Assembly: GCA_030442055.1 (NCBI GenBank)
Contig: JAUJEB010000004.1
Span: forward strand, 620,001 to 684,000
Reading direction: 5' to 3'
From: Agaribacillus aureus
GTDB taxonomy: Bacteria; Bacteroidota; Bacteroidia; Cytophagales; Cyclobacteriaceae
Length of the DNA stretch: 64,000 nt
Shown: one piece after another, positions 15,407 through 32,556 of the stretch
Layout: each line of letters starts with the position of its first letter
Numbering within the stretch: position 1 is the stretch's first letter
The notes under the pieces: model-generated
Seen by the model: only the letters and a program-made list of their open reading frames with translations
What the model was told of the DNA's origin: nothing
Databases searched by the model: none
Made by a program: the position numbers and the translations under genes

Positions 15407-18133
15407 TCAGTTTTCCACCTCAAAACTGGCCAGCCCTGACATTTTCAACCAATCTGCAATACCTTCAATGGAAAGATAAATTTTCGCGCTATTGTCTTCC
15501 GATGCTGTTAACAAATATTTGTTATCACCTGAAAGCCGCAACCGGTTGATTTGCGCCTGATGCAATTTAATACTTGTGATCAACTCCCCGGAATACCGAA
15601 AGACCAGCAACCTGCCATTTGCCGTGCTGGCAAAAATAATCTGGCGATCGAAATCGCTGGTTGCGGCGGTAATATTTCCAAAACGACGAGGAAAGTGATG
15701 TACCACCTGAAACTTATCGTCGATCAGCAATAATTCTCCGTTACCCTTTGATACCAAATACCCACCCTCTTTTTCTTTATGTATAATTTTTCTTACAGGT
15801 TGATCTTTAAATCCAACCCAGCTCAATTGACCAGGATCACCCAATGTAGCTAATCCCTTGTTGGTGGCCAGGATCAACGTTTTGTTGTCGCTATATTCAA
15901 AGTCATTGATGACCAGGGTTGAGTCTTTGAAAGTGAAGACCGTATCTTTGGGAATAGACAACATCTTCAGTGTATTGTCAGAGGCCAGTGTTGCCATGTT
16001 ATTTTGTCCGGCTGCTACGCGTATCTGCAGGTTATCCGATCCCAGCTGGTTCCATTGGGCTTTCACCTCGCCGGAGGCGCTGAGTCTTTTTACCTGCCCG
16101 TTAATTATCCCCAAAAAGTCGCCATTTTCCATTGTAAAGATCTGAGTAACAACCATCCCATTGAGGAAATTCCCGTTGATCATTTTTCCATTTTTATCCC
16201 ACGTTCTGACGAGGCCTCTGCCCGAAAGCGTGAAGATATTCTTTTCATCCCGCCCATAAAAAACATCTTTCACGCCGCGAGCATGTAAATCCATGGATGT
16301 CAGCAACTTGGAATCAACCGGCCACATTTTGATGGTACCGTCTTTGGCTGCGCTTGTAATCTTTTTGCTATCGGCCGAGAATTGCGCTTTGGTAATCGTT
16401 CCCTGGTGGGCTTTTAATGTTTGCAAATGGTTGCCTTTATTGTCCCAGACCTTTATAGTATTATCCAGTGAAACCGTCAAAATATACAACGAATTTGGAG
16501 AAAAGCTTGCTTCTACCACCGCATCTGCATGACCGGCCATGGTTTTAATAAACCTGCCATCCCAGGACCATAGCTTGGCTGTCTGATCATCGGAGGCCGT
16601 GACCACTTTGGTTCTGTCCGGTGAGAAGGCGGCTACATTGACAATACCATTATGTCCCCGGAGTCTTTTGATCATCTCCCCTTGTTTGGACCAAATAACG
16701 GCTGTACTATCAAAGGAGGCCGATACTATACGACTTCCATTGATGGAGTAACCCAGCTTGATGATTTCATCAGTGTGTCCGATAAATTCCTTTAACGTTT
16801 TTCCCTGAAAATTCAGCAGCTTAATTTTATCTCCAAATGCTGTAACAATAATGGCTTCCACCGGCGAAAATGCTGCGTAGTTGACAATTTCATTTTCCTC
16901 GCCAAGCGTTGAAATCAGGTTTCCGGTGTTATCCCATATTCTTAATGAATCATCAGTGATGGTGAGCAACCTGTTTCCCCGGGGAGATATCATGCCAAAA
17001 GTAACATCATCCTGGTGTCCCGGTAAAGTTTTTATGAGCTCCCCATTGATGGTTAAGAGATTAACCGTATTGTCGTCGGAGGTGGTGAGAATAAATTGAT
17101 TAACCGGAGAATAAGTTACCTGGTTAACTTTACGTTTATGGGCGTCAAAGGTAGTTTCCACCTCTCCGGTTTCATTGACTATCCGGATTTTACCATCATC
17201 GGAGGCCACTAACAGTTTGTTAACTTCCGCAATCTCCTGAAAATCATTAACCGCAGAGGTAAATGCGATATCATTTTGATAAAACGCATATTTGAGAGAA
17301 TAGCTGGTATAGAATGCATCATACATAGAGGACAAAATACTGGAGGGAAAATTTTTGTCTTGCAATCCAAAATTGAGATAGCCCTGCTCCGCATACCTGA
17401 GGGCTTTGGTCGGATCGCTGGCATAAGCATTGTTACTTTTGACAGCCATTTTAGTGGCATAGGCTAATTTACCTTGAACCGTAGCCTCATTTTGTCTTTT
17501 ATCTGTCTCCTCAATGGCCAGCTTTGCATTTTCTCTTTCCTTGCTGACGGTTAACTGAGAAGCATTCACCAATTCCCGGTTGGTCGTAAGTTGATCCGAT
17601 AAATAATAGATATAATAGGAAGCACCCAGTATAAAGAAAATGGAGATCACTACCAGTGAGGCACTGATAAGATTACTTTGTTTTAAAATTTTGTTTTTTA
17701 CCCTAAAAGTCGCCGCACCGGTAACAGCGTCATAAATGGCATTAGACGGTTTGAGACTTTCAAGAAAAGATGGCTTTTCCACTACCTTTTTTTGATTTTT
17801 CAGGAGGTAGTACCACCTGGAATCTTTTAAAAATCCCATGTCAATGGCGACAACGGCTTTTCTGTTTTTAATAAAGGCCTCTATGGTCTTTTCAATAAAT
17901 TCCGACTGCATTCCCTCTTCAGTAGCCAATACTACGAGCAGTGTGCTTCCGTGAATCGTACTTCGAGCGGGTTTATCCCTGATATCCAACCCATTTACCA
18001 GGTGTATATAACATCTGAAATTATCATTGGACAAGTAATTCGCCAATGACTCTACGTAGTCTGAAAACTCATTTCCCGCATGTAAAAAGCAGATATCATA
18101 GCCGAAAATAAGATCTCTTATTCTTGCAAACAT
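15407..18133 (-). CDS. TIR-like domain, transmembrane helix and WD40 beta-propeller protein
   Basis: The protein has 908 residues. Residues about 11-100 look like a TIR fold: first strand YDICFLHAG, helix SLANYLSNDNFRCYIH, strand STLLVVLATEEG, then SEFIEKTIEAFIKNRKAVVAI. In that last segment the usual catalytic Glu of NAD-cleaving TIR domains appears to fall on Thr83. A hydrophobic helix at about 155-177 (LVVISIFFILGASYYIYYL) is followed by a charged, coiled-coil-like segment (180-215) and at least a dozen WD40-type repeats from about 290 to 890 (FSPDRTKVVTASDDQTAKLW is typical). The TIR part is expected in the cytoplasm, with the propeller on the other side if there is only one span. No NTPase module is present. 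The likely role is signalling or defence, which is inference from architecture. Confidence 0.78.
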   Translation of the reverse strand: MFARIRDLIFGYDICFLHAGNEFSDYVESLANYLSNDNFRCYIHLVNGLDIRDKPARSTIHGSTLLVVLATEEGMQSEFIEKTIEAFIKNRKAVVAIDMGFLKDSRWYYLLKNQKKVVEKPSFLESLKPSNAIYDAVTGAATFRVKNKILKQSNLISASLVVISIFFILGASYYIYYLSDQLTTNRELVNASQLTVSKERENAKLAIEETDKRQNEATVQGKLAYATKMAVKSNNAYASDPTKALRYAEQGYLNFGLQDKNFPSSILSSMYDAFYTSYSLKYAFYQNDIAFTSAVNDFQEIAEVNKLLVASDDGKIRIVNETGEVETTFDAHKRKVNQVTYSPVNQFILTTSDDNTVNLLTINGELIKTLPGHQDDVTFGMISPRGNRLLTITDDSLRIWDNTGNLISTLGEENEIVNYAAFSPVEAIIVTAFGDKIKLLNFQGKTLKEFIGHTDEIIKLGYSINGSRIVSASFDSTAVIWSKQGEMIKRLRGHNGIVNVAAFSPDRTKVVTASDDQTAKLWSWDGRFIKTMAGHADAVVEASFSPNSLYILTVSLDNTIKVWDNKGNHLQTLKAHQGTITKAQFSADSKKITSAAKDGTIKMWPVDSKLLTSMDLHARGVKDVFYGRDEKNIFTLSGRGLVRTWDKNGKMINGNFLNGMVVTQIFTMENGDFLGIINGQVKRLSASGEVKAQWNQLGSDNLQIRVAAGQNNMATLASDNTLKMLSIPKDTVFTFKDSTLVINDFEYSDNKTLILATNKGLATLGDPGQLSWVGFKDQPVRKIIHKEKEGGYLVSKGNGELLLIDDKFQVVHHFPRRFGNITAATSDFDRQIIFASTANGRLLVFRYSGELITSIKLHQAQINRLRLSGDNKYLLTASEDNSAKIYLSIEGIADWLKMSGLASFEVEN

Positions 18134-19004: not shown

Positions 19005-20393
19005 TTATTTGGCTTTTATGTATTTCAACAGCAGTTGAAATATTTGGTCGGCTTTCAAAGCAGTGTTTTCATGTAGTTGCTCTGACGCGTTAAGAACACT
19101 TCCCGCCAGTATAGGCCAGTCTTCCTGCGATTCGGGGATACGGCCGTGGGAGCCTTTTATAAGCCGGTCATTCAGGGGAATAACATCCATAAGCGTCCTG
19201 AATCCCAGTTTTTTCTTTAACAATTTATAGCCTACGGTTAAAAGTGGGAATTTAATTTCGGGATTCAGCACCATTTCTACCGGGTCATAACCGGGTTTAC
19301 GGTGAATATCGACGGTTCTGGCAAAATCGGGTGCTTTGGCATCTTCCAGCCAATAGTAATAGCTAAACCAGGTGTTTTTATCAGCTACTGCTATCAAATC
19401 GCCTGATCTTGGGTGATTTAGCTGATATTGTGCTTTGTCTTCCCCATCCAGTACCATCTGAATCCCCTGAACGCTACTTAAGATATTTTTTACACCTTGA
19501 ATATCTTCTCTATTCTTTACATAAATGTGAGCTACCTGATGATCTGCCACGGCAAATGCCCGGCTGGCTCCTGCGTCCAAAAGTTCCCTGCCCCTTTCTT
19601 CCCTGATTGTTATCAACCCGGCCTTTCTTAAAACACGATTGAGGGATATGGCCTGATTTACATCTGTGATGCCATATTCCGAGATCAACATCACTTCTGT
19701 TTCCCTTTTTTCATAAAACGTTATCAAATCCTCCAGCACTAAATCAATTTCCCGCAGGTCGTCACTTATTTTTTCAAAATCAATACCATGGCGCTGCAGG
19801 TTATAATCGAGATGTGGTAAATAAATAAGGGTCAGTGTTGGCTGATATTTGGTATCTACCTCCTTGGCCGCGTCTGCAATCCAGCTGCTTGATTTGATGG
19901 ATGTTTTTGGGCCCCAGAAATTGAATAATGGAAATTGCCCAAGCTTGCCTTGCAACGAATCCCTCAGGTCGGCGGGATGGGTATATATATCAGGGATTTT
20001 CCGGCCATCAGCCAGGTAATTTGGCCTGGGGGTAATCGAGAAATCAACTGACGAATACATGTTATACCACCAAAACAAATTGGCACAGGTAAACGACGGG
20101 TCTTCTTCCTTCAACAGCTCCCAGATCTTCGGGGCTTGTACGAGTTTATTTGATTGCCGCCAGAATTTAACCTCACATTCTTCTTCAAAATACCAGCCAT
20201 TACCTACAATACCATGCTCCGCCGGCCATTTTCCGGTGAGATAGGTAGCCTGCGCAGAACAGGTCACGGCGGGTAAGACAGGTTCAATTGTTTTTAGCTT
20301 TACCTTGTTCAGCCAACGCTCCAGGAAAGGTGTATTGGTTCCAATCAGTCTTGAAGTCAATCCGACTACATTAATAAGTACTGTCTTTTTCAT
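19005..20393 (-). CDS. eboF: EboF-like alkaline phosphatase/nucleotide pyrophosphatase superfamily protein
   Basis: The 462-residue protein belongs to the NPP/alkaline phosphatase superfamily. Thr44 in AVTCSAQATYLTG is the expected nucleophile. Asp196, His202 in HLDYNLQRHG and the late SHG (KGSHGRIP) match metal ligands. Two canonical sites differ: the first DG is VG (Val10-Gly11), and the SDHG motif is SEYG (238-241). The protein may therefore bind one metal or act differently from true NPPs. It is last in a six-gene ebo cluster, 9 bp after eboE. The ebo cluster is known from Bacteroidota, cyanobacteria and eustigmatophyte plastids, and is linked in cyanobacteria to export of the scytonemin precursor. 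No enzymatic role of EboF is established. Confidence 0.88.
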   Translation of the reverse strand: MKKTVLINVVGLTSRLIGTNTPFLERWLNKVKLKTIEPVLPAVTCSAQATYLTGKWPAEHGIVGNGWYFEEECEVKFWRQSNKLVQAPKIWELLKEEDPSFTCANLFWWYNMYSSVDFSITPRPNYLADGRKIPDIYTHPADLRDSLQGKLGQFPLFNFWGPKTSIKSSSWIADAAKEVDTKYQPTLTLIYLPHLDYNLQRHGIDFEKISDDLREIDLVLEDLITFYEKRETEVMLISEYGITDVNQAISLNRVLRKAGLITIREERGRELLDAGASRAFAVADHQVAHIYVKNREDIQGVKNILSSVQGIQMVLDGEDKAQYQLNHPRSGDLIAVADKNTWFSYYYWLEDAKAPDFARTVDIHRKPGYDPVEMVLNPEIKFPLLTVGYKLLKKKLGFRTLMDVIPLNDRLIKGSHGRIPESQEDWPILAGSVLNASEQLHENTALKADQIFQLLLKYIKAK

Positions 20394-20402
20394 AGGGTTT
20401 AA

Positions 20403-21617
20403 TCACTGCACATTTTTCAACACCCAGTTTAACTCCCTGGTAATCGATGTGGTTAAATCGACCTGCATGGCTTGTGGCAAAACCTCCCAGGTGTAGGTCT
20501 CCACTTCCAAATGCTGTGTAATCTCGTGCACCTTGTTTAACGCAAATACCTTAAGTATATCTTCCTGGGTAGATTCCAGCTGATCGTATTTATCCAAAAA
20601 GACCGGGACATGAAAATGCGATCGCCATTCCCGAAAATCCCTATCCGGAAAATGCTCGATGGCTGCAGGCAGGTCATTGTACTGGTATTTGACGTCACTG
20701 GCATCTCTTCCTACTACCTGGTGGAGATAGGTGGGTTCATTAAAATGGTGAAAATCTTCCAGGATATGAGCCGTTTTACCGGCATCAGAAGTAAAAAGCG
20801 CTTTCAAAGCTGCGCTGATCTGTATTTTTCCTATCCCAATGCCTGCGGACCTGAAAGCCTGGAATACCTGGTCAGGTTCCTCATACACTACTGCAAAGTG
20901 GCAAACGTCGTAGCAAATCTGCAGGTGTGATTTAATACGGCGCTCCGCTTCCTCAGCTTCAAACCCGAAGTGTTCCTTTAAAAAAGGAGTGCCCATTGGT
21001 ATTAACCATTTTTGAAAATAGGTAAGCACCTCAGCAGTGTTTTCGAGAAGGCCATCGGGCTCGGGTTCAATGTCCAGGTGTAGTTTTTTGCCTGTTTCTT
21101 TCTCCAGCTCAATCAGGTATTTAATCACCTCCAGCAAATGACGGGTTCCCTTTTCCCATATCTCGTTTAAAGCTTGATTATCGTGATTCCACCATAGTTT
21201 ATAAGAAATTGGCGAAGTGGAAATCCCTCCATCCACCCCTTCGGGCAAAATTTCAGCTAATATTTTAAATAAACGCACCGTGTAGTCTACCCGCTCGCGG
21301 GTCGTCCAGTCAGGATGGTGTACCTGGTCTTTAACCCTTTCTCCATGAAAACTCCCAAAGGGAAAACCATTCATCGTAAATACATATAACTCGTTTTCCG
21401 TCAACCAGCTTTTAAAATGATCGAGTGCCTGCCCTTCCAAAAGCTGCTTACTGGCCAGATCCGACAGTCTGATACCTATGCCAAAGGGGCTGTCGGGCGA
21501 TACCTGGGATTTTATCTCAGGGATGTACTGCTTCAGGTAGGTAAACACCTCGGACCAAGACTCCCCCTTGTGAATGTTGGTGCAGTAAGTGAGGTGTTGG
21601 TTATTTTTTAGTTGCAT
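20403..21617 (-). CDS. eboE: EboE-like xylose-isomerase-type TIM barrel protein
   Basis: The 404-residue protein resembles sugar phosphate isomerase/epimerases of the AP endonuclease 2/xylose isomerase fold. Visible metal-site candidates are Glu and Asp in HLDIEPEPDG, Asp and His in ICYDVCHFAVV, and the later FREWRSHFHVPVF. The N-terminus LTYCTNIHKGESWSEVF is characteristic of EboE. It is cytoplasmic by sequence. Spacing to eboD is 31 bp and to eboF 9 bp, so it is co-transcribed. The substrate is unknown, though isomerisation or epimerisation of a sugar or polyol made by EboD is plausible. Confidence 0.9.
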   Translation of the reverse strand: MQLKNNQHLTYCTNIHKGESWSEVFTYLKQYIPEIKSQVSPDSPFGIGIRLSDLASKQLLEGQALDHFKSWLTENELYVFTMNGFPFGSFHGERVKDQVHHPDWTTRERVDYTVRLFKILAEILPEGVDGGISTSPISYKLWWNHDNQALNEIWEKGTRHLLEVIKYLIELEKETGKKLHLDIEPEPDGLLENTAEVLTYFQKWLIPMGTPFLKEHFGFEAEEAERRIKSHLQICYDVCHFAVVYEEPDQVFQAFRSAGIGIGKIQISAALKALFTSDAGKTAHILEDFHHFNEPTYLHQVVGRDASDVKYQYNDLPAAIEHFPDRDFREWRSHFHVPVFLDKYDQLESTQEDILKVFALNKVHEITQHLEVETYTWEVLPQAMQVDLTTSITRELNWVLKNVQ

Positions 21618-21648
21618 TGGTTAAACCGGCTTTGTTGCATCAAGTTAA

Positions 21649-22824
21649 TCAGCACTTTGGTACTGTTTCCTCATCGAATTTCTTTAATTCCAATATGGCA
21701 TGCTGCATTTGTTCATAATCGATATCGTTGACCTCTACTCCTTCGCCAATATCTTTCAATAACATAATGGTCAATTTCCCTCCCAGGTGTTCCCTAAATT
21801 CATTTAGCCCATCCATCACAGGGTTTTTGTGACCTGTGTCAGCCAGCAATTCTGGAACAAAGAGCTTAAATTTCAAATTTTTAAACAGGGTCAAAATCTC
21901 ATGTAGCGCTGCCTGGGACAATAATCCGATTAATTGGGAATAGATACTATCCAGGGCAATACCGATGGCCACTGCCTCGCCATGTCTAAGTCTATAGTCT
22001 GTTAACTGCTCCAGTTTATGCGCTGCCCAATGCCCAAAATCCAGCGGCCGGGAGGAGCCTTTTTCAAACGGGTCGCCACCGCGGGAGATATGATCCAGGT
22101 GGAGTTTGGCACATTGATAGATGAGTAAATCCATGGATGAGGCATCCCGGCTCAGCAAGGTCCCGGTATTTTGCTGGATTTGTTTGAAAAAATCCCGGTC
22201 CTTGATCAACGCTACCTTGATTGCCTCCGTAATTCCGCAACGCCAATCCCGGTCTTCGAGGGTGGAGAGAAAAGCCGAATCATTAATGACGGCAAAAGGT
22301 GGGGAAAAGCAGCCTATGAAATTCTTTTTCCCAAATTGGTTGATCCCGTTTTTAACACCTACTCCAGCATCATTTTGGGCCAATACCGTGGTAGGAACAC
22401 GGATATGCCGTATACCTCTATGGGCAATGGTGGCGGCAAAACCGGCCATATCCAGCACCGAGCCACCTCCGATAGCAATTAAATAAGCATGCCTATCCAG
22501 GCCAAACTCATTGACGGCGTTCAGGATGGTTTTAACATGACGGTTATCATTTTTAACCGTTTCGCCCCCAGGTACTACCAAAGGCGGACACACCAATTTA
22601 ATACCCAGATTGCCATTGTGGGCATAATTGGTAATACCAGTGATCAGTTGGGTGTGGGCGGCTATTACACCTTCATCGACAACAACCAATATTTTGGCCG
22701 TTTTCTGATCCCGGGCGCTGCCTATTAAATCTTTTAAAAGATGGTTATTCTCCGCAAACAGATCGCGGGTAAAATGTACTTCATAAGAAAACGGGACTTG
22801 AAAAGTCTGGCTAATTTTCCTCAT
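21649..22824 (-). CDS. eboD: EboD-like 3-dehydroquinate synthase-family protein
   Basis: The 391-residue protein is of the AroB/sugar-phosphate cyclase superfamily. The NAD-binding GGGSVLDMAGFAA and the zinc ligands are in place: Glu in GITEAIKVALIKD, His in DFGHWAAHKLE and His in LRHGEAVAIG. The catalytic Lys region KVALIKD is present. Family members cyclise seven-carbon sugar phosphates (dehydroquinate, 2-epi-5-epi-valiolone, EEVS-like products). Being inside the ebo cluster and separate from aro genes, it is more likely an EEVS-like or unknown cyclase than the shikimate enzyme. It follows eboC by 23 bp. Confidence 0.9.
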   Translation of the reverse strand: MRKISQTFQVPFSYEVHFTRDLFAENNHLLKDLIGSARDQKTAKILVVVDEGVIAAHTQLITGITNYAHNGNLGIKLVCPPLVVPGGETVKNDNRHVKTILNAVNEFGLDRHAYLIAIGGGSVLDMAGFAATIAHRGIRHIRVPTTVLAQNDAGVGVKNGINQFGKKNFIGCFSPPFAVINDSAFLSTLEDRDWRCGITEAIKVALIKDRDFFKQIQQNTGTLLSRDASSMDLLIYQCAKLHLDHISRGGDPFEKGSSRPLDFGHWAAHKLEQLTDYRLRHGEAVAIGIALDSIYSQLIGLLSQAALHEILTLFKNLKFKLFVPELLADTGHKNPVMDGLNEFREHLGGKLTIMLLKDIGEGVEVNDIDYEQMQHAILELKKFDEETVPKC

Positions 22825-22847
22825 ATTACTTTTCTCCTATCACATAT

Positions 22848-23762
22848 TTATGTTACCGCAAATACCTTTGCCATAGCCATTGAAACCGGTAACAATAACA
22901 AAATTATCACTCCCGGCAACCATCCCCCGTAAGTTGCCGCCAACGCAGCATCCAGCACAATTAAGGCCAATACGCCCGCCTTTACCGCCTTGCCTATTAA
23001 AAGCGGCTCATGCCGCTTCCAGGCACTAAATAAAGGGGGAATGATTAAATATGCAAGCAAGGCCAAAAAAGTTAAACTGTAAAGAAAACTTGCTTCCATG
23101 ATCAGCCCAAGGGATAGAATGAATAAAATTACCAAAATGTAAAACAAGAATCCGATGACGAGGTTAATTTTTTTACCACCGTGTACCTCTCCCTGGCTAA
23201 TCAACGTAATCGCGCCAATGTAAAATATCGGTATCAATATAAGAAACCAACTTACATTGATCATCGCCGGAAATGCGCTGACGCCCAGCAAAAGATTTCC
23301 CCCACGGCAAAGCCCCATCGCTAAAGGTCCTAAAAACGTTTGGTGTTTAGCATATTTATCATAAAACAAAGCCATCAGGCTAATGCCCGCGGCTATAAAA
23401 AGACTAATGGTGCTTACTTTGAAAGCTGCCAGGTTGCCAATGAGCAGCAGCCCTGTCCCCAATAAAGCAGCTTCCAGCTTACTGGTTCTTCCCCCGGGGA
23501 TCGGTCTTTCCGGCCTTTCCACCCGATCTAATTCAGCGTCAAAAAAATCGTTAAAAACTACACCCCCACCGTATAAACCAAAGGTAGCGGTCAATAACCA
23601 AAACAGCTCGTGACTGGCCAGGTAACTTATATTCCAATCGTTAGTGATCCCTGACTGCAATACGTACCCAATCACGTAGCCAGCCACAATATCGGCAAAT
23701 GCGGTGAGAATATTGGCCGGACGCATCAGCTGCAGACAGGCGAATAATTTCGAACTTTTCAA
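22848..23762 (-). CDS. eboC: EboC-like UbiA-family prenyltransferase
   Basis: The 304-residue integral membrane protein has about eight to nine helices. The first Asp-rich motif is NDFFDAELDRVERPERPIP, and the second region DKYAKHQTFLGPLAMGLCRG lies in the matching loop. UbiA enzymes attach isoprenoid chains to aromatic or polyol acceptors in the inner membrane. The start is TTG at 23762: an in-frame TGA lies upstream and no ATG lies between. ATG at 23726 (Met13, before RPANILTAFADI) is an alternative. It lies 53 bp after eboB and 23 bp before eboD. Within ebo it presumably prenylates a cyclitol made by EboD/E, which is inference. Confidence 0.9.
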   Translation of the reverse strand: MKSSKLFACLQLMRPANILTAFADIVAGYVIGYVLQSGITNDWNISYLASHELFWLLTATFGLYGGGVVFNDFFDAELDRVERPERPIPGGRTSKLEAALLGTGLLLIGNLAAFKVSTISLFIAAGISLMALFYDKYAKHQTFLGPLAMGLCRGGNLLLGVSAFPAMINVSWFLILIPIFYIGAITLISQGEVHGGKKINLVIGFLFYILVILFILSLGLIMEASFLYSLTFLALLAYLIIPPLFSAWKRHEPLLIGKAVKAGVLALIVLDAALAATYGGWLPGVIILLLLPVSMAMAKVFAVT

Positions 23763-23815
23763 AAGCTTGAATTTAGATAAAAAAGGTCAAAAAATACCAA
23801 AATTGTGAGGATGGA

Positions 23816-24721
23816 TCACTTAATTATATTGCTGTCAGCTCCTTCTACCAGGGGACTTTGCCCGCCCCTTAGAACAGAATTCCCTTCAAAATTTAGCTTT
23901 TGATCAACGCCATTAGTCATTTCCCAGTCAGACGCATTAAACTGCCCGCTCTTTCCGTAGGCCTCCAATGCATTTTGATAACAAACTTTATGAATTGCTT
24001 CATCCGCCACACCTCGTTCTTTCATCAATGCGGCTGTTTTAGGCACCGCCAGCGGATCGCTGATACCCCAGTCGGCCGAGCTATCAACGATGATTCTTTC
24101 ACTGCCATACTGCTTCACTACCTCTACCATTCGCTCATTGCCCATTTTGGAGTGTGGATAAATAGTAAATGCCGCCCAAAAACCTCTGTCTAAGACTTCT
24201 TTGACAGTCTCTTCATTGTTATGATCAATAATTACCCAATCCGGCTGGGCGCCATGCTCAATAGCCACATCCATACTCCTGGAGGTGCCTGCTTTTTTAT
24301 CGCGATGAGGAGTATGGACCTGGATTGGAAGATTCAGCTCAAGAGCCAGATCAATTTGCTTCCGATAAAATTTGTCTTCCACGGCTGTCTGATCATCGTA
24401 ACCAATTTCTCCAATGCCCACTACCCCTTCTTTACTGGCAAAAAGCGGTAACAAATCCATTACTTCTTCGGCCAGCGCTTCGTTGTTGGCTTCTTTGGAA
24501 TTTAACCCAATCGTACAGTAATGTTTAATACCGAATTGACTGGCCCTGAATCTCTCCCACCCGACAAGGCTGCTGAAATAATCTTTGAAGGTTCCTACCT
24601 CTGTTCTTGGTTGTCCAAGCCAGAATGAAGGTTCAATAATAGCAACAATTCCAGCCTCACGCATGGCCACATAATCATCGGTGGTACGAGAAGTCATGTG
24701 GATATGTGAATCTATAAACAT
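23816..24721 (-). CDS. eboB: EboB-like TatD-family metal-dependent hydrolase
   Basis: The 301-residue protein has a TIM-barrel amidohydrolase/TatD fold. Metal-binding HxH is in DSHIHM (residues 4-9), followed by GIGEIGYD, QVHTPH, IDHNN and a late Asp in VDSSADWG. This is the full set of TatD-type ligands. The C-terminal tail of about 35 residues is low in motif content. It starts 18 bp after the eboA stop. Cytoplasmic; substrate unknown. It is assigned to ebo by order and family, not by activity. Confidence 0.9.
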   Translation of the reverse strand: MFIDSHIHMTSRTTDDYVAMREAGIVAIIEPSFWLGQPRTEVGTFKDYFSSLVGWERFRASQFGIKHYCTIGLNSKEANNEALAEEVMDLLPLFASKEGVVGIGEIGYDDQTAVEDKFYRKQIDLALELNLPIQVHTPHRDKKAGTSRSMDVAIEHGAQPDWVIIDHNNEETVKEVLDRGFWAAFTIYPHSKMGNERMVEVVKQYGSERIIVDSSADWGISDPLAVPKTAALMKERGVADEAIHKVCYQNALEAYGKSGQFNASDWEMTNGVDQKLNFEGNSVLRGGQSPLVEGADSNIIK

Positions 24722-24739
24722 ATTTAATCGTTTTAATTT

Positions 24740-25675
24740 TTATTCGTATAAAGGTTTTTTTTGGTAGCGTCGGTTTTCCCACTGACTACCGATCTGCTTC
24801 CAGTTAATCATTCGGTTTTCAATTCCTTCCCTAAGATCATGGTGATTTAACAACAGGGTCTTTGCCCTTTCCGAACCACTGTTGTAACAGGCCAGCGCTG
24901 CGGCTTGCTGTTGCAATTCGTCAGTGTCGTCGAGCAGGCGGCGCAAATCTGCTAACAACCCATCTGTTACGTAGGGACCTATCCCACACCATAATTCCGG
25001 CATGGTAATCCGGCCTGCTGCCCAACGCTCATGGGCGTAGTCGGCGATCATAGCGGCCAGTTTTTCATTATACCGCTCTTCCATGCCCTGAATCCGGTAA
25101 ACAGGCCTTTCCATAAAAAAGGCTTTCAGCACCATCTGATTCCATGCTACTTCATTGAAATAATCTTTGGGGTATGGGTTGTTGAGAGCCATGGCATCAA
25201 ATACCGCGGTCATATTGGTTCGGATTCCCTCCGCAGCGCGTTGATGTAGCGCTTCGCCTATTGGCAAAAGCGGCAGTCCGGCATATAACGCCACCAGTTC
25301 ATCTACTCCTGCTGTTTCAAAAAGGTTCTTTAGCGTATTTTGGCAAAAGGACTTTTCATCGAACGGCATATATAATAAAATCAAATTACGGCCAACCTGA
25401 TCAATGGTCCAGTGACTAAGATCGAGTCCGCTTCTCAGATTTTGACCCGCTGCTATTTCCTCATCCGTTAGATCCAAAGTCTGTTTTCCAATAAACCTGG
25501 GAACCAAATTAAAAGAAATATAAAAATCCATTTCTCTGGGATCCTTGAGGAGTTGTTCGATTTTCTTATCAAGCCATTGCTGTCCCTTTTCATCGGTTCG
25601 TGAGACGATGATGTTGTAAAGATATTGTTGAGCAAGTTTAATATTCGAGAAAGAAATGAGATTGGAACTTATCAT
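24740..25675 (-). CDS. eboA: EboA-like helical protein
   Basis: The 311-residue protein is all-helical, with no signal peptide or catalytic motif. Visible features are QLLKDPREMDFYISFNLVPRFIG near 43-65 and a C-terminal ARM/HEAT-like stretch (LLADLRRLLDDTDELQQQAAALACYNSG) before the end. EboA has no known activity and defines the start of ebo clusters. It leads the operon here, 83 bp downstream of an unrelated metallopeptidase gene, so the ebo promoter probably sits in that gap or upstream of the peptidase gene. Confidence 0.85.
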   Translation of the reverse strand: MISSNLISFSNIKLAQQYLYNIIVSRTDEKGQQWLDKKIEQLLKDPREMDFYISFNLVPRFIGKQTLDLTDEEIAAGQNLRSGLDLSHWTIDQVGRNLILLYMPFDEKSFCQNTLKNLFETAGVDELVALYAGLPLLPIGEALHQRAAEGIRTNMTAVFDAMALNNPYPKDYFNEVAWNQMVLKAFFMERPVYRIQGMEERYNEKLAAMIADYAHERWAAGRITMPELWCGIGPYVTDGLLADLRRLLDDTDELQQQAAALACYNSGSERAKTLLLNHHDLREGIENRMINWKQIGSQWENRRYQKKPLYE

Positions 25676-25758: not shown

Positions 25759-26781
25759 TCAATCAAATTTGCTGGCATAACCACTCAAAACCAGAAAATC
25801 CTGCCCATTTTGGATCTCGAGGATACTTTTTATCGCCGCAGTTTTGTCGCCGGACTGGTTGTAAAAGTGCTCTGCAATTTTGTATCCGACGTAATAACCT
25901 AAATCGCCGGGGCGGTTGCCGGCATTTGCTCCGTTGTAGAGCCAGCGGGTGGTGTTGGTGTTCGACATCTCCGGTTCAAATTCCCGCCAGAGATCTTGCT
26001 CTATAGGATCGGCATAGTCATGAATAAAATCATTAAAAAATTCACCCAGCACCAAATCTGTTATAAAATCTGCGCTCCCTTCGGCCAGTGACAGATCCAA
26101 CAAAGTCCGCCCGGTCAAAATCGAGCTTCCCCGCTCATTGGCTATTCTCATTTGCTGAACATGGACCAATTCGTGTATTACAATTGATGGCAGGAATGTC
26201 CTGTTTCTCACCACCGACCTTTGCCAACTGTTCAAGCCATCCAAAGGGGTGTTGTCATCGATAGCAAACATTTCAGTCCCAATCACCATTTGGCCGTTTT
26301 TCACCACTGTTCCACCCGTGGAAAGGGCTCCGATAACAAAAACGATATCCGAAAATACAGCCTCTTCATACAGCTGTTTCAGTTGGGAAAAGCCCGCATA
26401 AATATCATCGGTGGCTGCCTCTAAATTTTCAGTGTTTTCTCTGATTCCCAAATAATAATCTCTGACACCCGGACTATTGAGGTTATTACTAAGTTTTGAA
26501 GCATTCTTAATTTTTTGTTCAAAAAAAAGGGCTAGGGCTTCGGTGCCAACATCGAAATAATCTTTTTTAAATACCTCTGCGGTAAAACTATTTCCGGCTG
26601 CATCAAAGGTTTTCCAAAATAATGGAATATCGCTGGTTACAATACTGGCGTCGAGAGGGTTATTATAAAACTGGACCGGAGTCGTTCCAGTGTCATCGTC
26701 ACCACAGCCGGTGAGCAACCAAAGCAGTGCCAGGAGCATCAAGCCTGTATTCCGGTACCATTTTAAACGTTTAAAGGCCAT
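25759..26781 (-). CDS. Putative zinc metallopeptidase lipoprotein (HExxH, DUF2268/GldB-like)
   Basis: I place the start at ATG 26781, giving 340 residues; the upstream extension to 26859 lacks signal-peptide character. The signal ends in LLWLLTGC, so it is a lipoprotein. The HELVH motif in SIVIHELVHVQQ is a gluzincin-type zinc site, and the Glu in LAEGSADFITDLV is the probable third ligand. The overall look is that of DUF2268/GldB-related lipoproteins. It would act in the periplasm or on the outer membrane. It lies 83 bp upstream of eboA on the same strand, so it may share a transcript with ebo, though no functional link is known. Confidence 0.75.
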   Translation of the reverse strand: MAFKRLKWYRNTGLMLLALLWLLTGCGDDDTGTTPVQFYNNPLDASIVTSDIPLFWKTFDAAGNSFTAEVFKKDYFDVGTEALALFFEQKIKNASKLSNNLNSPGVRDYYLGIRENTENLEAATDDIYAGFSQLKQLYEEAVFSDIVFVIGALSTGGTVVKNGQMVIGTEMFAIDDNTPLDGLNSWQRSVVRNRTFLPSIVIHELVHVQQMRIANERGSSILTGRTLLDLSLAEGSADFITDLVLGEFFNDFIHDYADPIEQDLWREFEPEMSNTNTTRWLYNGANAGNRPGDLGYYVGYKIAEHFYNQSGDKTAAIKSILEIQNGQDFLVLSGYASKFD

Positions 26782-26915
26782 GGGTAGATGTTTATAGCCA
26801 AATAAAGCCTTGTTACCATCAGTAACAAATATTCGGAAAAACAAGTTTGCAAACTGCAAAAAACATAATGGCGATATGTCACCACAAAGTGAATTCCGGG
26901 AACGGTCACCCCGTA

Positions 26916-29271: not shown

Positions 29272-31182
29272 TTAAAAATGCCACCTGACGAACGCTTCAA
29301 TGGCCTCATATTCAGCCAATCCCAGTGCATCATATTCCATGGCGGTAGCCCGGTTTCTGTCTTCGGCTCTTTGCCAAAATTCGCGGCTGTCGTGACCGGG
29401 AAATAAAGGCCGGTCTTTTTGGGATTGATGTTTAAAAATGGCCCTCCTCTTTCTGTCCAACTCCAGCGGACTGATGGGCACTGCCATTTCTATCTTGTCG
29501 GCTTCCCATTCCTGCCAGGCCCCTCTGTACAGCCAAACCCAGCAGTTTACCATCCAATCCTGATCTTTTAACACTTCTATCGCCCGCATAATAGCGTTCA
29601 GGCAAACGCGGTGTGTGCCGTGGGGGTCTGATAAATCACCGGCCGCGTAAATTTGGTGGGGTCTGATTTTGTTGATGAGATCTACAGTTATCCGGATATC
29701 CTCCTCGCTGAGTGGTTTTTTCCGGACCCGTCCTGTTTCGTAGAACGGCAAATCCATAAAGTGCGCCCTTTCCTGTGGAATACCGCAATAGCGAATAGCC
29801 GATTTAGCCTCGCTTCTTCTGATGAGGCCTTTGATCTTTTGAATATCGGGCGAATCCACCTGCCCGGGTGTTTTGTTTAGAATAAAATCTCTGATGCTTT
29901 TGTTAATTTCTTCTACGGGCTCATTATCCAGGCCAAATTCCTTGTTGAAGTCGAGGTTAAAATCCACAAACCGCACTACGTCATCATCAAAAACAGCAAT
30001 GTTGCCGGAGGTCTGATAAGCCACATGTACCTCGTGACCGTGATCTACCAATCTTATCAGGGTCCCGCCCATCGAAATTACATCGTCATCGGGGTGAGGG
30101 CTAAAAATCAATACCCGCTTTGGAAAGGGCACCATTCGCTCCGGCCTGTGGCTATCGTCGGCATTTGGCTTGCCGCCGGGCCAGCCGGTGATGGTATGTT
30201 GTAATTCATTAAATATTTTTATGTTGACCTTATTTGCCGGCCCCTGCTCGGTGATAAGGTCGCTCATGCCGTGTTCATTGTAATCTTCATCTGTAATTTT
30301 CAGAATGGGCTTATTCACCTTGCGGCAAAGCCAGACTACCGCCTTTCGCCGCAATGTGTCGGTCCATTCACAGGGCCCCACGAGCCAGGGTGTTTTGACC
30401 CTGGTTAGTTCTGCCGCAGCCGCCTCATCAACTATCACTAGGGTATCGGGATGATTTTGCAGAAAGGTGGCCGGCACCATGTCGGTTATCTCTCCTTCCA
30501 CTGCCTTGTGGATAATCCGGGATTTACCTTCTCCCCAAGCCATTAGTATTACTTTTTTGGCATCAATGATGGTGCCAACACCCATGGTCAGGGCTCTTCT
30601 GGGAACGTTCTCCTCGCTAAAAAAATCGCTGGCGGCATCTACCCTGGTAATTTTATCAAGACTGATCAAACGGGTCCGCGAGCTGGCCTGGGAACCGGGT
30701 TCGTTAAAACCAATATGTCCGGTCCTTCCGATACCAAGAATCTGTATATCCAAACCACCCAGTTTAGTGATCTTTTCCTCATACGACTGGCAAAAGGCAT
30801 TGATCTCACTAACGTCCAGCAAACCATCGGGTATGTGTATATTTTCTCTTTTGATATCAATATGATCAAACAGATATTCATTCATAAAGCGCACATAGCT
30901 TTGTAAAGAGTCCGGTTGCATAGGATAGTATTCATCCAGGTTGAAAGTCGCTACATTGGCAAAGCTCAACCCCTCCTCCTGATGCATACGTACCAACTCC
31001 TCATACACCCTGGTAGGTGTTGACCCCGTTGCCAGGCCCAAAACCGCCGTTTTATTATGCTTTTGCTTTTCCAATATTAAATCTCGAATAGATTGAGCGA
31101 CCGAAATAGAAGCTTGCTGCGCATCGGCAAAGATTGCTGTCGGCAGTTTTTCAAATTGTCTTTCTGGATCGTTGTTTAACAT
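29272..31182 (-). CDS. nagB: Glucosamine-6-phosphate deaminase fused to a PIG-L/LmbE deacetylase domain
   Basis: The protein has 636 residues in two parts. Residues about 10-280 are NagB: LATGSTPTRVY (phosphate loop, 50-60), FNLDEYYP (80-87) and GIGRTGHIGFNEPGS (150-164). Residues about 345-560 are a PIG-L/LmbE metal-dependent N-deacetylase: FSPHPDDDVISMGGT near 360-374 and DPHGTHRVC in the later part hold the zinc ligands. NagB turns GlcN-6-P into fructose-6-P and ammonia. The PIG-L part could deacetylate GlcNAc-6-P, replacing NagA, which is absent from the window. This fusion is common in Bacteroidota; the substrate of its PIG-L half is not settled. Confidence 0.93.
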   Translation of the reverse strand: MLNNDPERQFEKLPTAIFADAQQASISVAQSIRDLILEKQKHNKTAVLGLATGSTPTRVYEELVRMHQEEGLSFANVATFNLDEYYPMQPDSLQSYVRFMNEYLFDHIDIKRENIHIPDGLLDVSEINAFCQSYEEKITKLGGLDIQILGIGRTGHIGFNEPGSQASSRTRLISLDKITRVDAASDFFSEENVPRRALTMGVGTIIDAKKVILMAWGEGKSRIIHKAVEGEITDMVPATFLQNHPDTLVIVDEAAAAELTRVKTPWLVGPCEWTDTLRRKAVVWLCRKVNKPILKITDEDYNEHGMSDLITEQGPANKVNIKIFNELQHTITGWPGGKPNADDSHRPERMVPFPKRVLIFSPHPDDDVISMGGTLIRLVDHGHEVHVAYQTSGNIAVFDDDVVRFVDFNLDFNKEFGLDNEPVEEINKSIRDFILNKTPGQVDSPDIQKIKGLIRRSEAKSAIRYCGIPQERAHFMDLPFYETGRVRKKPLSEEDIRITVDLINKIRPHQIYAAGDLSDPHGTHRVCLNAIMRAIEVLKDQDWMVNCWVWLYRGAWQEWEADKIEMAVPISPLELDRKRRAIFKHQSQKDRPLFPGHDSREFWQRAEDRNRATAMEYDALGLAEYEAIEAFVRWHF

Positions 31183-31272: not shown

Positions 31273-32556
31273 TTAACCACAGGCAAAACTCAGGATATAT
31301 CCGTTTATGTCTCTGATATCAAAATCACGGAGGCCATAATCTCGTTGTTGCGGTTCATTGATAATTTCTACACCATTTGCCTTCAGCTCCTCATAAAGGC
31401 CATCGATATCATACACAAAAATATAATAAGCTGTATGCATTTGTGAAGGTTTGAAGTCATCTCCTTTTTTACTGAAATGAATGCCCACGTTTTGTCGCTT
31501 AACTACCGCGTAAGTGGGAGGATCTTCCCATAAATATTTGACTTCAAATCCGAGTTTATCTCTATAATATTCGACAGTCTGTTTCACATCCTGAACCGGA
31601 AACACAGGAGCCGCATGGGAGAGCTGCTTTTTATTTTCCGCTGAAGTGTATTTATTCAAGAGGTTAATCACTTCATATTCATGAACTTCAACTGCCCAGT
31701 CTATGGGTGTTTTATTGAACTGCGTCTCTACCTGGTCTGGATCGCCCCCATTTGCCAACAGCAACTTCAGTGTTGGTATTTGTCCCGCATAGGCAGCGTA
31801 ATGCAAACCGGTTTGGTTATAAGATATACTACAGTTAGCAGATACCCCTTTGTCAAGCAACGTTTGCACCACCTCCTCGCGTCCGTGCAGGCAGGCGTAA
31901 ATAAAGGCAATTTCCATTGGGTCCTGATCTTTTGGTGGTGGCCAGGAAAAACGTCCCATTTGCGTTTTGTCAGCTACTTTAAATTTTTTGGCCGTTTCCA
32001 GCAAATTACCGCCAGTGTCAAAAAAAGAATCGACTAATGCCGTTTCCCCCAGTGCGGCTGCAAATATGAGGTTATTAAAATCGCCCCCCTTCGACGCCAG
32101 GGTTTCAGCTGCTTCGCGATAGCCGAATCCTATGGCTATTCCCAACGGTGCGCCGTCGTTTAATAAACCGTTAGGATTGGCACCGTGCTCGATCAATAAG
32201 GCTACCAACGCGGACTGCACGCCTGCCTGATAAGGCCCCCAACTGCTTACAAGATTGTTAAGTGGTGTCTGGGCAGGGCCTCCACCATACATTTCTGCCG
32301 TAGCGTCCACCTCTGCCCCCGCGTCCAGTAATATACGGCCAATTTCCACTGCGTTGGGAGGAGTTCTTTGCAGGGTATCTTCTACACCGTTGGCAGCCAG
32401 ATAATGTAGTAAGGTACCTTTATGAGCCAAAGGCGATCGCAGCTTAGGTAGTCCGGGGTTTTGGGCCAACAACTGTTTCAGGAGTTCTTCCTCTCCATCA
32501 ATAACGGCACTGACCGCCTGATAGAAAACTTTATTTTCTGGATTATCTTCACTCAT
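31273..32556 (-). CDS. Ankyrin-repeat protein with C-terminal VOC/glyoxalase domain
   Basis: The 427-residue protein has no signal or membrane helix. Residues about 20-300 carry ankyrin repeats: GTLLHYLAANG, IGRILLDAGAEVDATAEM, LVALLIEHGANPNGLL, VVQTLLDKGVSANCS, TGLHYAAYAGQIPTLKLLLANGGDPD and KTPIDWAVEVHEYEVINLL. Residues about 312-427 are a VOC (glyoxalase/bleomycin-resistance) domain, with FPVQDVKQTVEYYRDKLGFEV, YAVVKRQNVGIHFS and a C-terminal INGYILSFACG. One VOC half usually dimerises to form a metal site. The joining of ankyrin and VOC is unusual. It follows tlpA by 98 bp on the same strand. Function unknown. Confidence 0.85.
   Translation of the reverse strand: MSEDNPENKVFYQAVSAVIDGEEELLKQLLAQNPGLPKLRSPLAHKGTLLHYLAANGVEDTLQRTPPNAVEIGRILLDAGAEVDATAEMYGGGPAQTPLNNLVSSWGPYQAGVQSALVALLIEHGANPNGLLNDGAPLGIAIGFGYREAAETLASKGGDFNNLIFAAALGETALVDSFFDTGGNLLETAKKFKVADKTQMGRFSWPPPKDQDPMEIAFIYACLHGREEVVQTLLDKGVSANCSISYNQTGLHYAAYAGQIPTLKLLLANGGDPDQVETQFNKTPIDWAVEVHEYEVINLLNKYTSAENKKQLSHAAPVFPVQDVKQTVEYYRDKLGFEVKYLWEDPPTYAVVKRQNVGIHFSKKGDDFKPSQMHTAYYIFVYDIDGLYEELKANGVEIINEPQQRDYGLRDFDIRDINGYILSFACG

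What the first reader, a model, noticed from the sequence alone, without database searches (positions are those of the whole stretch)
19005..25675. Complete six-gene ebo cluster (eboA-B-C-D-E-F) in order and tightly packed
The gene order and families (EboA, TatD-like, UbiA, AroB-like, TIM-barrel, NPP-like) match the ebo operon of Bacteroidota, cyanobacteria, algal plastids and endosymbionts. Gaps are 18, 53, 23, 31 and 9 bp. The product is unknown; by enzyme type a prenylated cyclitol is a reasonable guess. In scytonemin-producing cyanobacteria ebo genes are needed for moving the precursor to the periplasm.
Basis: partly seen in the sequence, partly recalled or inferred. Interest (0 to 1): 0.7.

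Follow-up and report, generated by a model that had tools for sequence, protein, structure and literature searches.

The report
A complete ebo cluster, probably making prenyl-cyclitol
A six-gene bacterial cluster of a known but unexplained kind is really here; comparison with other microbes suggests that it makes a greasy ring-sugar molecule, and points to sister clusters in which that idea can be tested.

Summary
Confirmed. Window 19005-25675 (minus strand) holds eboA-B-C-D-E-F in order, with the stated gaps. NCBIfam models for EboC, EboE and the EboA domain pass their cut-offs. The cluster is ordinary for its family: EboE is found in 70 of 196 genomes.

New evidence bears on function. (1) Of 47 plasmid records with EboE, 15 carry EboD beside it and 29 carry inositol-3-phosphate synthase instead, none both, 3 neither. 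The second form occurs in Actinomycetota and Gemmatimonadota; two haloarchaeal plasmids pair the same enzyme with EboB, C and F. A known cyclitol-forming enzyme in EboD's stead supports a cyclitol product. (2) EboF, called a phosphodiesterase, has four of six metal ligands of its superfamily replaced in 82 of 82 related and 12 of 12 diverse sequences, so that name is doubtful. (3) EboD departs from AroB at two active-site positions in 84 of 84.

Best explanation: a pathway making a prenylated cyclitol in the membrane, used to move an aromatic metabolite outward. Inferred, not shown.

The parts
24740..25675 (-). eboA, 311 aa, all-helical protein, no Pfam family
   Evidence: NF035938 over cut-off, NF035937 under; no Pfam match; model pLDDT 93.9, all helix; no PDB match at E<=0.001
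23816..24721 (-). eboB, 301 aa, TatD/amidohydrolase-type metallo-enzyme with its presumed metal ligands intact
   Evidence: PF01026; H6, H8, E105, H136, H167, D217 invariant in 12 of 12; their roles recalled
22848..23762 (-). eboC, 304 aa, UbiA-superfamily prenyltransferase, TTG start
   Evidence: NF035940 380 bits; then the SCO3242 model, then geranylgeranylglycerol-phosphate geranylgeranyltransferase; N71, D72, D75, D79 invariant in 11 of 11
21649..22824 (-). eboD, 391 aa, sugar phosphate cyclase, not the genome's AroB
20403..21617 (-). eboE, 404 aa, xylose-isomerase-like TIM barrel (the barrel from a sub-threshold Pfam match and the model's name)
   Evidence: NF035939 502 bits; PF01261 18 bits, cut-off 31; E184-P187, C235.D237..H240, H334.H336, E371.E373 invariant in 12 of 12
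19005..20393 (-). eboF, 462 aa, alkaline-phosphatase-superfamily fold with most of the canonical di-metal site replaced
   Evidence: (PF01663)

Best explanation
This is a genuine ABCDEF-type ebo operon. I think it makes a prenylated cyclitol in the cytoplasmic membrane. EboD cyclises a sugar phosphate (most likely sedoheptulose 7-phosphate) to a keto-cyclitol. EboE, and perhaps EboB, reshape the ring (isomerisation, epimerisation or dehydration). EboC attaches a prenyl chain, probably farnesyl. EboA is a helical scaffold. EboF is a repurposed alkaline-phosphatase-fold protein that no longer has the standard two-metal site. The prenyl-cyclitol then acts as a membrane carrier or cofactor by which an aromatic metabolite reaches the periplasm. 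Shown here: gene identities, the order, a separate aroB, the alternation of EboD with inositol-3-phosphate synthase in other ebo clusters, and the conserved active-site changes in EboD and EboF. Inferred: every substrate and product, the order of steps, and the link to export in this organism.
For: Family and order. Separate AroB. Alternation: of 47 plasmid records with EboE, 15 have EboD beside it (E<=1e-40), 29 have inositol-3-phosphate synthase within 5.2 kb start to start (E<=1e-30), 0 have both, 3 neither. The synthase is real (PF07994 and PF01658 over cut-off in 3 of 3 tested). The 7 such loci examined hold EboB, C, E and F homologues but no EboD. On quick trees of EboB, EboE and EboF the head enzyme changes twice each. 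Two haloarchaeal clusters pair the synthase with EboB, C and F. EboD: His at the DHQS Lys250 place and Asp at the Asn268 place in 84 of 84, E194, K197, H271, H275 and H287 kept; ValA, a C7-cyclitol synthase, aligns Met and Asp there, the own AroB Lys and Asn (residue numbers and roles recalled). EboC's next models after the SCO3242 one are enzymes that prenylate a polyol phosphate. [quoted passage not shown] three EboC homologues farnesylate in vitro (PMC9235831, part 1 of 4 and passages).
Against: The EboC acceptors assayed were aromatic: 14 tested, 6 farnesylated, quinolines best; no cyclitol is mentioned in what I read. Heterologous expression of the Pseudomonas EDB cluster, which contains ebo, gave indoles (review passages). 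No pigment or exporter gene is among the neighbouring genes that I annotated; I made no genome-wide search for one. Inositol-3-phosphate synthase keeps the phosphate whereas EboD-type cyclases eliminate it (recalled), so the two heads would not be identical. Most of the 29 synthase records are closely related Streptomyces. 8 of the 40 synthase records show no EboE or EboF in the same record, among them 2 Halomarina. PMC5133447 reports ebo operons without eboD in Leeuwenhoekiella and two Planctomycetes; I did not check these for the synthase.
Confidence: 0.57

Rival explanations
1. The product is a prenylated aromatic, such as a farnesylated quinoline acid, and EboD supplies an aromatic or aminoshikimate-like precursor.
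For: EboC homologues farnesylate 8-hydroxyquinoline-2-carboxylic acid and quinaldic acid in vitro (PMC9235831). Ebo is tied to an aromatic metabolite in Nostoc, and a lone eboE sits beside a type II PKS in one Streptomyces.
Against: 29 of 47 plasmid ebo records have inositol-3-phosphate synthase and no EboD; that enzyme makes a cyclitol phosphate. EboD lacks two AroB active-site residues. By family none of the six proteins is an oxidase or aminotransferase.
Confidence: 0.16
2. The Ebo proteins form a membrane-anchored traffic complex that moves small molecules directly, and the enzyme-like folds are not catalytic.
For: Each single deletion made in Nostoc blocks export alike. EboF has 4 of 6 canonical metal ligands replaced. 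EboA is an all-helical model with weak HEAT/ARM-type resemblances.
Against: EboB keeps six presumed metal ligands in 12 of 12. EboD keeps its presumed metal ligands in 84 of 84. EboC homologues are active enzymes. A different cyclitol-forming enzyme can be present instead of EboD. Loss of one shared pathway explains equal phenotypes as well.
Confidence: 0.15
3. Inositol-3-phosphate synthase is only a frequent neighbour, not a functional stand-in for EboD.
For: Most of the 29 records are closely related Streptomyces. The synthase comes with an extra sugar phosphate isomerase (7 of 7) and is the first gene of the row, not in the position that eboD has in the window. The synthase also occurs without ebo genes in 8 of 40 plasmid records.
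Against: The same pairing occurs in Gemmatirosa, whose EboB, EboE and EboF do not group with the actinobacterial ones, and with EboB, C and F in Halobaculum and Natronococcus. No EboE record has both enzymes at the thresholds used. The ebo-linked synthases form one clade apart from the 4 unlinked ones in the tree (97/98), but the 2 Halomarina synthases, unlinked and about as similar, were not in that tree.
Confidence: 0.12
4. EboD is a second 3-dehydroquinate synthase that boosts the shikimate pathway.
For: Database models name it so (PRK06203) and the solved relatives are mostly DHQS.
Against: The genome has its own aroB over the equivalog cut-off and EboD falls below it; two active-site changes in 84 of 84; the published phylogeny places EboD apart from DHQS (PMC5133447, section 3.4.2 read).
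Confidence: 0.04

Closest known systems
ebo operon, ABCDEF type, of Bacteroidota and eustigmatophyte plastids (PMC5133447)
   Same: Same six families, order and single strand.
   Different: Nothing of substance seen; the flanking genes match only the same-genus locus among 80 loci compared.
ebo cluster of Nostoc punctiforme needed for scytonemin-monomer export (PMC6282210)
   Same: Same protein families (names from the paper's passages; sequences not compared here).
   Different: In Nostoc eboD is not in the cluster proper; no pigment genes were recognised among the annotated window neighbours.
Actinobacterial clusters with inositol-3-phosphate synthase and an SCO3242-family prenyltransferase
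   Same: EboA, B, C-like, E and F homologues in a tight row.
   Different: No EboD found; inositol-3-phosphate synthase and an extra sugar phosphate isomerase instead. The EboC homologue passes the SCO3242 model, not the EboC cut-off.
Haloarchaeal clusters of TatD, UbiA and NPP proteins with inositol-3-phosphate synthase and two isomerases (Halobaculum, Natronococcus)
   Same: EboB, EboC and EboF homologues, with the same EboF site changes except Leu for Gln at one place in Halobaculum.
   Different: No EboA or EboD found and no clear EboE.
[quoted passage not shown]
   Same: Sugar phosphate cyclase; Asp where DHQS has Asn268.
   Different: EboD has His where ValA has Met (Lys250 place) and keeps His where ValA has Pro (His275 place).
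Xanthomonas NPP (2gsn) and phosphonoacetate hydrolase (1ei6)
   Same: EboF's fold and the Thr nucleophile.
   Different: Metal ligands D54, H214, D257 and H258 (numbering recalled) are V, Q, E and Y in EboF.

Membership tests
ebo cluster (ABCDEF type) | EboA, EboC and EboE family proteins | tested here: met
   EboC, EboE and EboA-domain models over cut-off; the longer EboA model NF035937 under its cut-off (267 of 320)
ebo cluster (ABCDEF type) | EboB, EboD and EboF in their superfamilies | tested here: met
   PF01026, PF01761 with PRK06203, PF01663 over cut-offs
ebo cluster (ABCDEF type) | Gene order A-B-C-D-E-F, one strand, short gaps | tested here: met
   83 of 99 related loci show the same order
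ebo cluster (ABCDEF type) | EboD distinct from the genome's AroB | tested here: met
ebo cluster (ABCDEF type) | Role in moving a metabolite across the inner membrane | not testable with these tools
   needs a deletion mutant; published for Nostoc
3-dehydroquinate synthase (AroB) | Curated aroB equivalog score (TIGR01357) | tested here: not met
   227 bits, cut-off 305; it does pass PRK06203, which NCBI also names 3-dehydroquinate synthase
3-dehydroquinate synthase (AroB) | Lys250 and Asn268 (A. nidulans numbering, recalled) | tested here: not met
   His and Asp in 84 of 84; Lys and Asn in the own AroB
NPP-type phosphodiesterase | Fold and Thr nucleophile | tested here: met
NPP-type phosphodiesterase | Six metal ligands of the di-metal site (NPP numbering recalled) | tested here: not met
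   2 of 6 kept in 82 of 82 and 12 of 12 sequences; one PF01663 protein from L102 used as control has the canonical residue in 5 of 6 columns, the sixth column did not align
UbiA superfamily, EboC subgroup | EboC equivalog score and first Asp-rich motif | tested here: met

The most novel reading that the evidence does not exclude
Ebo is one version of a prenyl-cyclitol pathway found in Bacteria and Archaea, with an interchangeable head enzyme (EboD or inositol-3-phosphate synthase) on a shared EboB-EboC-EboF core, and EboF is a repurposed alkaline-phosphatase-fold enzyme with a new active site. In the synthase-type clusters the head group should derive from inositol, so its chemistry can be found by labelled-inositol feeding.
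Probability: 0.53. Interest if true: 0.65.

Novelty: new member of a known kind. Interest (0 to 1): 0.5.

Why it matters
The product of ebo is unknown in the papers I could read, although the cluster is widespread and needed for a sunscreen pathway in Nostoc. If inositol-3-phosphate synthase stands in for EboD, the chemical class of the head group is nearly fixed, and the question moves to organisms where inositol labelling is simple. The window cluster itself is ordinary for its family.

Tried and rejected
Neighbour genes as a clue in Bacteroidota: 80 loci (the five duplicates and loci with fewer than four ebo genes left out), 649 neighbours; no family is beside ebo in more than 13 loci (an M28 peptidase), so the neighbourhood says little. 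Weak hints of sugar or cyclitol chemistry (Gfo/Idh oxidoreductases in 8 loci, a 3-keto-disaccharide hydrolase in 9, a xylose-isomerase-like barrel in 5) were seen.

EboE against the PDB by profile: no useful match. EboA by fold: no match at E<=0.001. EboF by plain sequence against the PDB: no match; the profile did match.

Considered and dropped: a chance ORF arrangement (scores too high); EboD as the only aroB; an inositol-3-phosphate synthase elsewhere in the own genome (0 of 11 genomes searched, G000 included).

Limits. The trees are quick trees with one support value. The synthase tree has 9 linked and 4 unlinked sequences, and leaves out the 2 Halomarina records. Haladaptatus has an archaeal EboF but is not in the synthase list. 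Of the 5 haloarchaeal synthase records I read 2 with their surroundings (L163, L164) and in Halocatena saw only the adjoining NPP gene. The 82 EboF and 84 EboD sequences are those left after dropping short, over-long and identical ones. In one search, 16 of 99 loci do not show all six genes: some end at a contig edge, some have the genes dispersed (EboC and EboE on different contigs in G016). Plasmid records may not represent chromosomes.
Full report
What is there. Six ORFs on the minus strand at 19005-25675 match the finding's coordinates, with gaps of 18, 53, 23, 31 and 9 bp. Curated models identify EboC and EboE well over their cut-offs, and EboA by its domain model, though the longer EboA model falls short (267 of 320 bits). 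EboB is in PF01026, EboD in PF01761 and EboF in PF01663, each over cut-off. The window is contig C31:620001-684000 of a 9.39 Mb genome. Judged from equal contig lengths, its family includes Aquiflexum lacus and its genus a MAG called Cytophagales bacterium MAG.99.

How common. EboC passes its cut-off in 20 of 59 genomes of the relatives sample, G000 included, and EboE in 69 of 196 genomes of the family, 70 counting one partial match, in 34 of 84 genera. In 9 of 9 EboC-positive genomes that I chose, EboE is also present; in 2 of 2 EboC-negative ones it is absent. Of 99 related loci, at least five of them duplicates, 83 show A-B-C-D-E-F on one strand. Of the window's flanking genes, the ACP phosphodiesterase, asparaginase, ROK kinase, WD40 protein and DUF2807 gene have matches beside ebo only in the same-genus locus L045 among 80 loci. 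The cluster is therefore an ordinary, patchily distributed ebo operon.

EboD is not AroB. The genome has one other PF01761 gene. It passes the aroB equivalog (330 bits, cut-off 305) while EboD does not (227); EboD does pass PRK06203, a model that NCBI also names 3-dehydroquinate synthase. In 84 of 84 EboD sequences from the window and related loci the residues at E194, K197, H271, H275 and H287 (A. nidulans numbering and roles recalled) are kept, but the Lys250 place is His and the Asn268 place is Asp. The own AroB has Lys and Asn there; ValA, a C7-cyclitol synthase, has Met and Asp. Lys250 is recalled as a carboxylate-binding residue of DHQS, so the change fits a substrate without carboxylate. 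Yurchenko and colleagues placed EboD outside DHQS by phylogeny (PMC5133447, section 3.4.2 read).

A second head enzyme. I searched plasmid records with EboE: 47 of 72,556 match. EboD (E<=1e-40) is found in 20 records and lies beside EboE in 15; the other five are four Acinetobacter records (one annotated aroB) and Gloeothece, which has eboB and eboD but no EboE nearby. Inositol-3-phosphate synthase (E<=1e-30) is found in 40 records and lies within 5.2 kb of EboE, start to start, in 29: 25 Streptomyces, 2 Embleya, Nonomuraea and Gemmatirosa. No record has both beside EboE; three Streptomyces records have neither (NBC_01562, NBC_01244, NBC_01340). In two of those three EboB and EboF are present, in the third only EboE, beside a type II PKS. 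In seven loci examined in detail EboB, C, E and F homologues are present, no EboD is found, and the synthase and an extra sugar phosphate isomerase are present in 7 of 7. Relatives of that synthase and isomerase (phmmer E<=1e-10) occur in none of the 99 loci and none of the nine EboD-type plasmid loci. Three of three synthases tested pass both Pfam models. Of the 11 synthase records without EboE, three haloarchaea carry EboF; eight, among them two Halomarina, show neither.

How deep the alternation goes. On quick trees of EboB, EboE and EboF the head enzyme must change twice each, because Gemmatirosa does not group with the actinobacteria. The ebo-linked synthases form one clade apart from four unlinked ones (97/98), so transfer of the synthase as a module is possible; the Halomarina synthases were not in that tree. 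Plasmids of Halobaculum and Natronococcus carry EboB (316-349 bits), EboC (175-191) and EboF (335-348) homologues beside the synthase and two isomerases, with no EboA or EboD found and no clear EboE. An archaeal EboF used as query finds 51 plasmid records (E<=1e-30): 46 of the 47 EboE records, four haloarchaea, and one Streptomyces with the match at the record's end. On plasmids EboF thus goes with ebo; PMC5133447 reports EboF homologues on their own in some eukaryotes.

Is this in print? The held texts of PMC5133447, PMC6282210 and PMC9235831 have no occurrence of 'inositol'. Two full-text searches combining inositol-3-phosphate synthase with ebo terms or with UbiA and TatD listed no paper holding both that enzyme and ebo; one listed paper (PMC3610822, listing only) holds SCO3242 and SCO3243. 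The library lacks most subscription journals, so this is no proof of novelty. PMC5133447 does mention actinobacterial fusions of EboA with a xylose-isomerase-like region; Nonomuraea L147 has such a fusion. It also reports ebo operons without eboD in Leeuwenhoekiella and two Planctomycetes, which I did not examine.

EboF. The model (pLDDT 87.9) matches phosphonoacetate hydrolase and NPPs (best E 8.3e-20). The profile aligned to Xanthomonas NPP 2gsn places the six metal ligands (the last lies in a weak piece of the alignment). In EboF four are replaced (V, Q, E, Y) and two kept, with the Thr nucleophile, in 82 of 82 sequences from the window and related loci and 12 of 12 diverse ones. The two archaeal ones agree except Leu for Gln in Halobaculum. 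A PF01663 protein from L102 aligned as control shows canonical residues in five of the six columns; the sixth did not align. Substitutions this strictly kept argue for a new function rather than decay. A word search of PMC5133447 for zinc and residues, and of PMC6282210 for zinc and catalytic, gave none on EboF's site.

Other parts. EboB keeps six presumed ligands in 12 of 12 (roles recalled). EboC keeps N71, D72, D75 and D79 in 11 of 11; after the SCO3242 model its next models are geranylgeranylglycerol-phosphate geranylgeranyltransferases, which prenylate a polyol. EboA is an all-helical model (pLDDT 93.9) without a confident PDB match; many of the weak top hits are HEAT/ARM-type helical repeats, in keeping with the TPR-like prediction in PMC6282210 (passages).

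Mechanism and doubts. A cyclitol head, prenylated by EboC, fits the alternation of EboD with a known cyclitol-forming enzyme, the TIM-barrel isomerases, and the loss of export when single ebo genes are deleted in Nostoc. Against it stand the aromatic acceptors seen in vitro and the indoles found with the Pseudomonas EDB cluster (review passages). In three Streptomyces loci a ScyD/ScyE-family gene and a multicopper oxidase lie near ebo, which suits export of an aromatic monomer for oxidation outside the cell. I hold the prenyl-cyclitol reading at 0.57. On checking, I lowered it by 0.01 and the novel case by 0.02, because the Halomarina synthases without ebo and the published eboD-less operons had not been weighed.

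Noticed in passing
L132:1064-4124, L136:4072-7090, L162:10855-14136: A pair of genes, a protein of about 590-660 aa (no Pfam match for the one tested, L136) and a PF12902 ferritin-like protein, lies beside ebo genes in Aureibacter, Mycetohabitans and Gloeothece, three phyla. Among the other loci searched it was found only in L050, the same Aureibacter replicon.
   Followed up: partly
L140, L143, L144: A ScyD/ScyE family gene directly before the synthase-type ebo cluster and a multicopper oxidase a few kb after it in three Streptomyces plasmids.
   Followed up: partly
L145:8968-10146: A lone eboE between type II PKS genes and FAD monooxygenases in Streptomyces sp. NBC_01244.
   Followed up: no
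L163:6106-12656 and L164:5945-12618: Haloarchaeal plasmids with an ebo-like core plus inositol-3-phosphate synthase; in Halobaculum next to trehalose synthesis genes.
   Followed up: partly
window 15407-18133 (-): A 908-aa protein with WD40 repeats; the N-terminus looks TIR-like by eye only. PADLOC's one hit is a HEAT-ARM_XIII model over the WD40 stretch (E 3.9e-19).
   Followed up: partly
window 25759-26859 (-): A GldB-like lipoprotein gene 83 bp before eboA, without a match among the ebo neighbours of 80 loci, L045 included; a different GldB-family gene lies after eboF in 5 of the 80.
   Followed up: no
window 29272-31182 (-): Fusion of a glucosamine-6-phosphate isomerase domain with a PIG-L deacetylase domain.
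   Followed up: no
window 31273-32556 (-): Ankyrin repeats fused to a glyoxalase-like domain.
   Followed up: no
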